Source: Dyadobacter sp. 50-39
Lineage (GTDB): Bacteria; Bacteroidota; Bacteroidia; Cytophagales; Spirosomataceae
Direction: 5' to 3'
Assembly: GCA_001898145.1 (NCBI GenBank)
Contig: MKSR01000048.1
Span: 1 to 64,000 of the forward strand
Length of the DNA: 64,000 bases
Part shown: piece by piece, positions 1 to 2,143 of the stretch
Layout of the letters: each line of letters begins with the position of its first letter
Position numbering within the stretch: position 1 is the first letter of the stretch
The notes under the pieces: model-generated
Seen by the model: the letters and a program-made list of their open reading frames with translations, nothing else
Database searches by the model: none
What the model was told of the DNA's origin: nothing
Program-made: the position numbers and the translations under genes

Positions 1-983
1 TGCTCTTTTTCTGTCTGGTCTACCAAAAGCAAAGTCGCTGCTTTATTTTTGAGACAGATCTCGATTAACCTTTTGCTATATACGTGCTGCTTGTGGGCAA
101 CATATCGCTTCTCTGACTGCATCAGATTTTCGATGGTGGATTGGCGTAGCTGTTCTCGGCTGTGTTGATTCATGAAAGCCATGGCCTTCCTTTTTCGCCT
201 GATTGCCGCCTGGATTGCAAGCCGCTTATAAAGATACTCGTCCTTGCTTCCGATTGTATAGCGTTTGTTGCCTACCGAAACGATGATCGGGTAATCCAGC
301 GACAAACTCGCTTCTGCAATGATATCCTGGTCAAGCGGCTGCTCCTGTCGTTCTATCTGAAAAACAGCAAGCATAAAAATCTTTCCGTTGTCCAGCGCCA
401 GCGAGCTGGTGCATAGTTTGACCTGGCTGGCTTCTAATCGTCGGAGCAGCTCCCGCTTATCATCACCTGCTCTGCCCAGATACGTCTTGAAGGGCATGTC
501 AAACAGGGTGAAATGGAACACCGCTCCTTCCCTACTGCTTCTGAACTTTTTAACATCGGTCCCTTTAAATGGGATCGGTATTTCCTTCCGGAAGCTAGGC
601 AAGCTGCTTTCGCCACTAGCCAGCGCCTTGCTCATTTTATTAAAGCTGGCCACCAGATTGCCATTCAAGGCGCTCATGATGTGCATCGGGATACTGCCTT
701 TGTAGTTTTGGGCCAAAACCTGGTAGCTGGTATTCATCCTTGATGTCGAAAGCATCCCATACGCGTCTTTTTTGATATCAGAGAGCCTGGCCCTAACGCC
801 TTCGGTCAGGTAGAGCATTTCCCTGAGTTGCTGTTGGACGTAATGGTGCGTATAGATCTGGTTAGCGGCTTTGAAGCAGATGTATCGCCATTGGTAGAGC
901 GTATCGATAATCTTGTTCTTCTGATCGATATCGTCCGAATCGATCAGAAGCCGGATCTTTCTAGTGGTGAAAAGCTTTTCCAT
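1..983 (-). CDS. Cas12f/TnpB-like protein, predicted nuclease-dead, partial (runs off the left edge)
   Basis: An open frame runs from the ATG at 983-981 to base 1 without a stop: 327 codons are visible and the C-terminus is outside the window. Residues about 220-327 match the RuvC region of Cas12f/TnpB proteins. A beta strand ending in YPIIVSV corresponds to RuvC-I, then a basic helix with KRLAIQAAIRRKRK, then KRYVAHKQHVYSKRLIEICL, which fits the family pattern of a basic helix, HK..S and a helix before RuvC-II. In that alignment the catalytic Asp of the usual GIDLG motif is Ser226 and the RuvC-II Glu is Asp322, followed by Gln. This predicts loss of DNA cleavage but not of guide-RNA or DNA binding. 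The gene starts 3 bases after the sigma factor stop, so the two are probably co-translated. The RuvC-III and zinc-finger part cannot be seen. An IS605-type TnpB is the alternative, but operon coupling to a sigma factor argues for an RNA-guided transcription factor. Confidence 0.8.
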   Translation of the reverse strand, partial: MEKLFTTRKIRLLIDSDDIDQKNKIIDTLYQWRYICFKAANQIYTHHYVQQQLREMLYLTEGVRARLSDIKKDAYGMLSTSRMNTSYQVLAQNYKGSIPMHIMSALNGNLVASFNKMSKALASGESSLPSFRKEIPIPFKGTDVKKFRSSREGAVFHFTLFDMPFKTYLGRAGDDKRELLRRLEASQVKLCTSSLALDNGKIFMLAVFQIERQEQPLDQDIIAEASLSLDYPIIVSVGNKRYTIGSKDEYLYKRLAIQAAIRRKRKAMAFMNQHSREQLRQSTIENLMQSEKRYVAHKQHVYSKRLIEICLKNKAATLLLVDQTEKE

Positions 984-986
984 GAT

Positions 987-1787
987 CTATCTGCCATTTT
1001 GCTTCCAGTGGTTTTTGATGAGCTGATATGCTTTGATGTAATGCTGCTGAACCTGGGTCTGCGGGTAGCCTAAGATGGAGGCGATGTCAGCAAAAGACTT
1101 CTTCTGAACGTGCCTGAGCTCGAAAACCGCCGCCTGCTCACTGCTCAGAATATGATCGTAAGGATAGGGCTGCTTTGCTTGCCTTATAGGCACAGTCGCG
1201 CGAGGCGCTACCATTTTTTTAAGCTCGTCCACGGCTTTTTGAATTTCGCTGCTCACATGCAGTGTGGTGGCTCCTATTCTTCTGGCTACCTGTTTCGGAC
1301 TGTGTCCATCCTTAAAATGAAGGCTCGCTATCAACTGGCGCTGTTTGGGTAGAAATGAGATCGCCTTGCTGATTTCCTCCCATCTTTTCACTTCGGTGCC
1401 GTCCGCGAAATAGCTATCCACATCTGGCTTTTCGCCCAGGAAAGGTTCGAGATGGTCTATTTCCGTCATTCTCCGGTATATCTGGTATGCAGGCTTTTGG
1501 ACCTGTTTCAAGAGTTGCCAACGGAGATTGAGACGAATAAACCGGTATGCATGAGGCAGGCTTTCAATCTTATCGCGGTGCGCCCAAACTTTAAGGTAAC
1601 ATTCGTGCAGGATGCAGCTTACCAGGAACTCGTCATTAACCAAGCTCTTGCCAACATATAAAAGGCTAGAAAATGACTTGTCGTAAAAACCTGTAAATGC
1701 GCGTTCATCACCATTCTTAAACCTGCCTAACAGATCGCCGTTTCCGCCAGGGTTGGCATGTAGCTTTCGAATTCCCATATCATACAT
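987..1787 (-). CDS. ECF-like RNA polymerase sigma factor with two sigma-4-type HTH domains
   Basis: This 266-residue protein resembles ECF sigma factors. A sigma-2-like region covers about residues 20-100 (GDERAFTGFYDKSF, then ILHECYLKVWAHRDKI). A sigma-4-like HTH covers about 133-192 (LPKQRQLIASLHFKDGHSPK, VARRIG). A second sigma-4-like HTH covers about 212-262 (LSSEQAAVFELRHVQKKSF, ADIASILGYPQTQVQQHYIK). Ordinary ECF factors are about 170-220 residues with one sigma-4, so the tandem arrangement is odd. The Cas12f-like gene begins 3 bases after its stop, giving a two-gene operon. The inferred role is to bring RNA polymerase to sites chosen by the guide RNA of the Cas12f-like partner. A start at the fourth codon (1778) is also possible. 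No anti-sigma gene is adjacent. Confidence 0.85.
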   Translation of the reverse strand: MYDMGIRKLHANPGGNGDLLGRFKNGDERAFTGFYDKSFSSLLYVGKSLVNDEFLVSCILHECYLKVWAHRDKIESLPHAYRFIRLNLRWQLLKQVQKPAYQIYRRMTEIDHLEPFLGEKPDVDSYFADGTEVKRWEEISKAISFLPKQRQLIASLHFKDGHSPKQVARRIGATTLHVSSEIQKAVDELKKMVAPRATVPIRQAKQPYPYDHILSSEQAAVFELRHVQKKSFADIASILGYPQTQVQQHYIKAYQLIKNHWKQNGR

Positions 1788-1860
1788 TATTGACTTAGTA
1801 TTACATCACTCCATCCATTTAGGTGCCTGAAACTGCGGAAAGCAGACACGTGGGACATTT

Positions 1861-1878
1861 GCTTAGTTATAACTAAGC
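1861..1878. promoter_or_regulatory. Perfect 18-bp palindrome, candidate operator between divergent genes
   Basis: The sequence GCTTAGTTATAACTAAGC is a perfect inverted repeat with 9-bp arms and no spacer. It lies 25 bases upstream of the XRE gene start and 73 bases upstream of the divergent sigma gene. An XRE dimer commonly binds such a site, so autoregulation and control of the sigma/Cas12f-like operon are inferred. Confidence 0.6.
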
Positions 1879-1903
1879 ACAAAAATAACGATGTTTTTGG
1901 TTC

Positions 1904-2143
1904 TTGCAACCCATGCCCGAAAAAACAGATTTCGAAATTGCGGTGATAAATCAAGTGAGGAAAGTCCGAAAAGCTAAGGGCTATACTCAGGACGATCTCG
2001 CTATGTTTCTAAATTTGACCAGGGGGTTTATCGGACAAATTGAAAGTCCCAAATTTCCAAGTAAATACAATATTGAACATATTGGAATACTCGCCCGTGA
2101 AATGAACTGTTCTCCCAGGGACTTAATGCCTGAACAGGTATAG
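1904..2143 (+). CDS. XRE/Cro-family transcriptional regulator
   Basis: This 79-residue protein is essentially one HTH_3 domain. The pattern VRKVRKAKGYTQDDLAMFL, then TRGFIGQIES, then MNCSPRDL is the five-helix Cro/CI fold with the recognition helix at about residues 38-48. The start could be the ATG at 1904 or the one at 1913. It is transcribed divergently from the sigma/Cas12f-like operon and the 116-bp intergenic region holds a perfect palindrome. It is therefore the likely local regulator of that operon. Similar small XRE proteins are common on Bacteroidota mobile elements. Confidence 0.85.
   Translation: MQPMPEKTDFEIAVINQVRKVRKAKGYTQDDLAMFLNLTRGFIGQIESPKFPSKYNIEHIGILAREMNCSPRDLMPEQV

What the first reader, a model, noticed from the sequence alone, without database searches (positions are those of the whole stretch)
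1..1787. Operon of an ECF-like sigma factor and a nuclease-dead Cas12f/TnpB-like protein: a probable RNA-guided transcription system
Seen in sequence: a sigma-factor gene (1787-987) is followed after 3 bases by a Cas12f/TnpB-like frame (983 to the edge) whose RuvC-I aspartate position is serine. Established knowledge, recalled and not checked: TnpB-derived nuclease-dead repressors exist, and nuclease-dead Cas12f proteins paired with ECF sigma factors in Bacteroidota have been described as guide-RNA-directed transcription initiators. Inference: this pair recruits RNA polymerase to guide-matched DNA instead of a promoter motif. This lineage, its unusual sigma and its adjoining XRE control would be a new variant.
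Basis: partly seen in the sequence, partly recalled or inferred. Interest (0 to 1): 0.95.

Follow-up and report, generated by a model that had tools for sequence, protein, structure and literature searches.

The report
Mobile RNA-guided transcription switch in Dyadobacter
The two genes are a sigma factor and a DNA-cutting-dead CRISPR-like protein of a recently solved kind that uses a guide RNA to tell RNA polymerase where to start; here they ride on a mobile element, and their guide RNAs resemble a switch-like sequence in front of nutrient-uptake genes.

Summary
Window 987-1787(-) is an ECF sigma gene; 3-983(-) is the first 327 residues of a nuclease-dead Cas12f, three bases on, cut by a contig end. 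A full-length sister in the same genome (363 aa) ends before RuvC-III. Both proteins match one solved system: dCas12f 9n9c (E 8e-109) and RpoE of the 'RNA-guided transcription complex' 9n9q (E 1e-28). So this is a member of the known dCas12f-sigma family; its second sigma-4-like domain and its XRE neighbour are not special to it. New here: (1) a covarying guide-RNA scaffold just 3' of dcas12f; (2) in Dyadobacter the cassette mostly sits beside relaxase genes of mobilizable elements; (3) guides correspond, behind a 5'-G, to one arm of a conserved hairpin leader before TlpA/SusC/SusD operons, often near ICE tra genes. The leader occurs in 11 of 12 dCas12f-positive and 7 of 36 negative Dyadobacter genomes; in G181 and G231 guide and leader agree 12/12. 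In this genome the match is weak (6-nt seed, then a one-base shift; not above shuffled guides), so its own target is open. RNA binding, DNA binding and transcription are inferred from homology, not shown.

The parts
3..983 (-). dcas12f, first 327 residues (cut by the contig end; the sister copy has 363). RuvC-I Asp is Ser226, RuvC-II Glu is Val321
987..1787 (-). ECF-type sigma factor, 266 aa, core at about 19-191 plus a second sigma-4-like unit near 214-259
1860..1879 (.). perfect 20-bp palindrome between sigma and XRE genes; candidate XRE operator (inferred)
1904..2143 (+). divergent XRE-family regulator, 79 aa (ATG alternative at 1913)

Best explanation
It is a member of the dCas12f-sigma RNA-guided transcription family carried by a mobilizable element of a Dyadobacter strain. 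The XRE protein probably controls the sigma-dcas12f promoter (inferred). dCas12f binds the structured RNA encoded just 3' of its own gene (a covarying RNA is shown for the full-length sister and relatives; binding is inferred; the window copy's RNA lies beyond the contig end). The 3' end of that RNA is read as the guide. The dCas12f-RNA-sigma complex pairs with a guide-matched site behind a 5'-G and brings RNA polymerase there (inferred from the solved relatives). The likeliest natural target class is a conserved hairpin leader before TlpA/SusC/SusD operons, many of them near ICE tra genes. Confidence by step: family membership about 0.95; RNA-guided transcription about 0.85; the leader as target of the family about 0.65; the leaders of this genome as targets of this genome's guides about 0.35.
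For: Homology to the solved dCas12f (E 7.9e-109) and RpoE (E 9.7e-29); fold matches 9n9m, 9n9c and 9n9q_C first. Sigma frame directly upstream in 71 of 75 loci. Guide scaffold with covariation, 7 of 14 pairs changed on both sides, slid controls far lower. Leader in 11 of 12 dCas12f-positive and 7 of 36 negative Dyadobacter genomes, Fisher p 1.4e-5, not corrected for kinship. Guide equals leader site 12/12 behind a G in G181 and G231; 11/12 in G218 and G199. Flavobacterial guides: 18 sites in 8 of 11 genomes with a G in front and at most 2 mismatches, 12 of 14 fetched places in the leader element.
Against: In this genome the guide fits its own leaders no better than shuffled guides (143 and 686 of 1000 shuffles reach the score), and G196, G220 and G229 likewise (681, 700, 443). 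The exact guide occurs in the own genome only in the two guide RNAs themselves. Seven Dyadobacter genomes have the leader without dCas12f. The F. taeanensis-type loci L049, L053, L055 and L059 showed no guide site in their loci. The G in front of the site is also fixed by the hairpin. The permutation of guides among genomes is only p 0.038 by matches (0.0024 by seed length) and ignores kinship. No expression or binding data.
Confidence: 0.8

Rival explanations
1. The pair is a real RNA-guided activator, but the Dyadobacter guide acts on a site not found here; the leader is an independent structured RNA (riboswitch-like attenuator) and its likeness to the guide is an inherited trace.
For: Own-genome guide-leader fit is not above shuffled guides; leader without dCas12f in 7 of 36 genomes; leader covaries as a long hairpin, 18 of 40 pairs.
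Against: 12/12 agreement in G181 and G231 and guide start exactly at the G in several genomes; co-occurrence 11 of 12; flavobacterial guides hit the same arm.
Confidence: 0.3
2. The 3' end of the RNA is no DNA guide but a mimic of the leader arm that pairs with leader RNA (with the complementary CCACGCC stretch) and controls it as an antisense RNA held by dCas12f.
For: Guide and leader arm have the same sense, and the leader's 3' CCACGCC could pair with the guide's GTGGG part (read; no folding of the two states was run).
Against: The solved relatives form R-loops and an RNA polymerase complex (titles); a conserved sigma partner has no role in this reading.
Confidence: 0.06
3. A nuclease-dead repressor like TldR, with the sigma only a neighbour.
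For: Catalytic residues are lost; TldR proteins are repressors (abstract and passages of PMC13418256, and recall).
Against: Sigma frame directly upstream in 71 of 75 loci; closest solved relative sits in a complex with the sigma's closest relative.
Confidence: 0.05
4. Decayed remnant of an IS605-type TnpB or Cas12f gene without function.
For: Catalytic residues are lost and the C-terminus is short.
Against: Frames without internal stops and conserved pairing in many genera.
Confidence: 0.02

Closest known systems
dCas12f-sigmaE RNA-guided transcription system (PDB 9n9c, 9n9m, 9n9o, 9n9q; recalled as Flagellimonas taeanensis)
   Same: Both proteins homologous over nearly full length, same lengths (363/365 and 266/261 aa), same lost catalytic sites, sigma with the same extra C-terminal unit, guide RNA scaffold 3' of dcas12f of the same three-stem type in L049, the F. 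taeanensis record.
   Different: Dyadobacter copies mostly lie beside relaxase genes (10 of 12 loci), have a short XRE-sigma region without the leader before sigma, and another guide.
Cas12f nucleases and TnpB (8hr5, 9nzo, 7wju, 8h1j and others)
   Same: Fold (Foldseek E about 1e-12 to 1e-16 for many Cas12f chains, 1e-4 to 1e-6 for TnpB) and weak sequence match.
   Different: No RuvC triad, no C-terminal zinc-finger/RuvC-III part, sigma partner.
TldR RNA-guided repressors
   Same: Nuclease-dead relative of TnpB used for gene control (recall; passages).
   Different: Here a sigma partner and the closest relatives are dCas12f of an activating complex; no TldR sequence was compared.

Membership tests
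dCas12f-sigmaE RNA-guided transcription | Full-length homology to a solved dCas12f | tested here: met
   E 7.9e-109 over 5-362 of 363 for the C29 sister; fold of the window part
dCas12f-sigmaE RNA-guided transcription | RuvC catalytic residues lost | tested here: met
   Asp to Ser226, Glu to Val321 in the alignment; the C29 sister ends before RuvC-III
dCas12f-sigmaE RNA-guided transcription | Cognate sigma encoded next to dcas12f | tested here: met
   3-base gap; E 9.7e-29 to RpoE of 9n9q
dCas12f-sigmaE RNA-guided transcription | Guide RNA encoded nearby | tested here: met
   For the C29 sister, C29:15056-15124(-), E 4.8e-18 with R1; the window copy's place lies beyond the contig end
dCas12f-sigmaE RNA-guided transcription | Guide-matched target behind a 5'-G (TAM recalled) | tested here: inconclusive
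   12/12 in G181 and G231, but not above shuffled guides in the own genome
dCas12f-sigmaE RNA-guided transcription | Guide-dependent recruitment of RNA polymerase | not testable with these tools
   needs experiment
TnpB of IS200/IS605 | Intact RuvC triad | tested here: not met
   alignment and the 363-aa sister; NF040570 far below cut-off (46.6 against 100)
TnpB of IS200/IS605 | IS605-type ends around the gene | not tested
   no search for such ends was made
TldR | Repressor without sigma partner (recalled) | tested here: not met
   sigma frame directly upstream in 71 of 75 loci
CRISPR-Cas12f adaptive system | CRISPR array and adaptation genes | not tested
   no dedicated array search; R1 found two strong scaffolds in the own genome, C29 and C41

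The most novel reading that the evidence does not exclude
RNA-guided control between mobile elements: mobilizable elements carry a guide RNA, a dead Cas12f and a sigma factor that together switch on hairpin-leader TlpA/SusC/SusD operons embedded in co-resident conjugative elements. The guide follows the leader allele across species, and starting transcription inside the leader could skip an attenuator.
Probability: 0.3. Interest if true: 0.82.

Novelty: new member of a known kind. Interest (0 to 1): 0.6.

Why it matters
RNA-guided transcription by dCas12f and sigma is a very recently solved mechanism (PDB release 2025-12-24), and I found no paper on its natural regulons in the library searched. 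A guide scaffold model (R1), leader models (R2, R3) and guide-leader pairs in named records (for example Dyadobacter sp. CY356, L034 and L035, with 12/12 agreement) make direct tests possible: delete the pair, map start sites, swap guides. If the cross-element reading holds, it is a new way for one mobile element to command genes on another.

Tried and rejected
Truncation as pseudogene: rejected, since the break is a contig edge and a sister copy is full length. The sigma as a new architecture: rejected, since 9n9q_C aligns over both parts. Known plasmids or phages: in 72,556 plasmid records 4 weak matches (23-26% identity), none covering 80% of the protein; in 50,697 phage records none. Guide sites in the own genome: 39 matches within 3 mismatches against 41 for the control pattern, the only two exact ones being guide RNAs themselves; 43 against 39 with a leading G. 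Rfam: nothing at gathering score in the window; in 9 loci 3 matches at E 0.5 or better, none on guide RNA or leader. More guide RNAs in the own genome: C29 and C41 only at strong scores, a third match at E 0.42. More leaders with a genus model: the same two. Guide permutation across 10 Dyadobacter genomes: p 0.038 (matches in 12) and 0.0024 (seed length), kinship not corrected; G178 (no leader) and G226 (dcas12f cut, no guide in hand) left out. The profile searches include the F. taeanensis record itself and are not used as independent evidence. Two structure jobs used alignments of 22 sequences.

Literature: six searches bearing on dCas12f-sigma or RNA-guided transcription listed no paper on this system among the entries shown (searches showed only part of their hits), and none on ICE-borne SusC leaders among the 10 of 33 shown; I saw search listings and the opening lines of abstracts. 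The one preprint identifier tried, from memory, was not held. Of PMC13418256 I saw the start of the abstract and passages. What I say of the original dCas12f-sigma papers (organism, 5'-G TAM) is recalled; PDB names and titles come from calls.

Rows dropped: of the 79 loci, four cut short or at contig ends (L031, L091, L092, L102) were left out of the 75 examined; one search's pattern found a scaffold in 43 of 75, of which 24 were aligned; 19 leaders were aligned for R2 and 14 for R3 (of 17).

Full report
What is in the window. The window begins at base 1 of contig C48 of a 7.7-Mb, 48-contig genome. The genus is judged to be Dyadobacter from the named nearest relatives. On the minus strand a 266-residue sigma gene (987-1787) is followed, three bases on, by an open frame of 327 residues (3-983) that runs off the contig. 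A divergent 79-residue XRE gene lies at 1904-2143, and a perfect 20-bp palindrome at 1860-1879 lies between the two genes.

Sister copies and the missing end. The same genome holds a full-length sister (C29:15137-16225, 363 aa; the window part is 88% identical to it) and another copy cut at nearly the same place by the start of contig C12. The window copy is therefore cut by the assembly. Parts of the surrounding element match at the contig starts C5:3 and C41:1 and near the end of C17, as expected of repeats that break an assembly.

Identity of the proteins. The full-length sister matches the solved 'Nuclease-deactivated Cas12f' at E 7.9e-109 over residues 5-362; the window sigma matches RpoE of 9n9q at E 9.7e-29 over residues 23-260. 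The AlphaFold2 model of the window dCas12f (mean pLDDT 82.3, pTM 0.60) finds 9n9m and 9n9c first (E about 1e-30), titled dCas12f-gRNA-DNA and dCas12f-gRNA complexes, then Cas12f nucleases and TnpB. The sigma model (pLDDT 77.6, pTM 0.38) finds 9n9q_C first (E 9e-11), titled RNA-guided transcription complex; the TM-score is low (0.32-0.33), so the arrangement of domains is not supported by this model. In the alignment RuvC-I Asp is Ser226 and RuvC-II Glu is Val321; the full protein ends before RuvC-III. The sigma has a sigma-70 core (TIGR02985 at 30-191, below cut-off; TIGR02937 above cut-off) and a second sigma-4-like unit near 214-259; the solved RpoE aligns across both.

How common it is. A scan of genome contigs found 230 encoding stretches; 79 loci were kept. 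In 71 of 75 examined loci a sigma-sized frame ends between 26 bases past and 37 bases before the dcas12f start. All 12 Dyadobacter loci among them have a small divergent ORF upstream of sigma; of ten such ORFs from several genera sent to Pfam, nine matched an XRE-like HTH model at E 0.01 or better, at least one of them below the curated cut-off, and one matched nothing.

The guide RNA. Directly 3' of dcas12f lies a conserved sequence. A pattern found it in 43 of 75 loci; the others did not match that pattern. An alignment of 24 gives three stems, 99.7% of cells paired, 7 of 14 pairs with changes on both sides, and a covariation score of 0.460 against at most 0.129 for slid structures. It ends in ATACAAC or a near variant; what follows varies and is read as the guide. 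In this genome it stands beside the C29 dcas12f and, without a dcas12f, beside an integrase gene at C41:469-537.

Guide targets in Flavobacteria and others. Of 43 guides tested against their own loci with a 5'-G, 10 hits were found, 8 of them 145 to 210 nt upstream of sigma (L050, L056, L058, L062, L065, L080, L083, L099); one shuffled version of each guide gave 3 hits in all. Across the 11 genomes held of 12 asked, the pattern GGCGTGGGCTCTCTTATT gave 48 matches within 3 mismatches against 15 for the control pattern; with a leading G and at most 2 mismatches there are 18 sites in 8 of the 11 genomes. Of 14 fetched places, 12 show one conserved element: before sigma-dcas12f in 3, before other frames, SusC-like ones among them, in the rest. 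The guide equals one arm of its hairpin.

The leader in Dyadobacter. A model of that element (R2) finds it in this genome at C37:5752-5880(+) and C7:20054-20185(-), and in 18 of 48 Dyadobacter genomes. dCas12f is in 12 of the 48. The leader is in 11 of those 12 (G178 lacks it) and in 7 of the other 36 (G087, G169, G184, G187, G190, G221, G223); Fisher p 1.4e-5, not corrected for kinship. The hairpin of 14 leaders, 12 of them from Dyadobacter, covaries in 18 of 40 pairs. The own C37 leader precedes TlpA-like, SusC, SusD and LanC-like genes; the C7 leader precedes SusC, SusD and a thioredoxin-like gene. In 14 other Dyadobacter regions fetched, SusC and SusD relatives lie nearby in all 14, and TraG and DUF4133 within about 6 kb in 8 (L249-L253, L258, L261, L262); the other 6 have no TraG in the 12-20 kb held. 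Near the own C37 leader Pfam names TraG and DUF4133; near the C7 leader a frame similar to them was used as a second TraG query and hit the same places. Of six flavobacterial leader regions, three have SusC and SusD matches and three have none.

Guide against leader. In G181 and G231 the guide TGGGTTCGGCTT equals the leader site 12 of 12 behind a G; in G218 the second guide shares a 9-nt seed (11 of 12); in G199 11 of 12 agree. Number of 1000 shuffled guides reaching the local alignment score: G064 first leader 0, G181 0, G231 0, G219 3, G199 9, G218 19, G064 second leader 45, own C37 143, G229 443, G196 681, own C7 686, G220 700. The guide of this genome, TGGGTTAGCTTA, fits the leader type TGGGTTTGCTTA at 11 of 12 in five genomes (G087, G199, G219, G221, G223), but its own C37 leader at 7 of 12, or a 6-nt seed and a one-base shift. 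These leaders are homologous, so the agreements are not independent. The link is good at family level and open for this genome.

Mobile setting. In 10 of 12 Dyadobacter loci a relaxase gene lies within 1.6 kb past dcas12f; L032 has only a weak match at 4 kb and L035 none. Of the 63 examined loci of other genera three have a relaxase match in the held flank (one query, so distant relaxases may be missed). Around the C29 copy Pfam names a NikA-like mobilization protein, a relaxase, a Vsr endonuclease and a cytosine methylase.

Mechanism and limits. Homology to a solved RNA-guided transcription complex supports RNA-guided recruitment of RNA polymerase. Not shown here: RNA binding, DNA binding, start sites, XRE control. 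That guided initiation inside the leader could bypass an attenuator is an inference from sequence: the leader's GGCGTGG segment could pair upstream or with CCACGCC downstream (seen); no folding of the two states was run.

Verdict. A new member of a known, very recent kind; the sigma and the XRE do not make it new. The mobilizable setting and the guide-leader link to SusC/SusD operons near conjugation genes are the interesting part.

Noticed in passing
L133:469-537 (G000:C41): A guide RNA of the same type stands beside a tyrosine integrase gene with no dcas12f between them; the last bases of the integrase gene resemble the last bases of dcas12f.
   Followed up: partly
L081, L063 and L067, 3' of dcas12f: Several guide-RNA-like units in tandem with different following sequence, like a small array.
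   Followed up: no
L036, L037 and L044, 3' of dcas12f (Pedobacter): Short repeats like ATTTGAAAGGTATATACAAC after the scaffold, as if scaffold and guide units were split.
   Followed up: no
L018:844-2241 and L019:1261-2673: Longer Cas12f/TnpB-like proteins (465 and 470 aa) of other genomes of the family, with seemingly intact RuvC motifs by eye.
   Followed up: no
window 1904-2143 and upstream of sigma in L024-L030: Closely related sigma-dcas12f cassettes carry different XRE types (at least three by eye), as if the regulator were swapped.
   Followed up: no
L237:12060-13196 (G000:C37): LanC-like gene in the leader-TlpA-SusC-SusD region; relatives also in L252 and L262.
   Followed up: no
L066: A record titled Neobacillus MAG carries a Bacteroidota-type dCas12f on a 7.4-kb contig; probably a binning error.
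   Followed up: no
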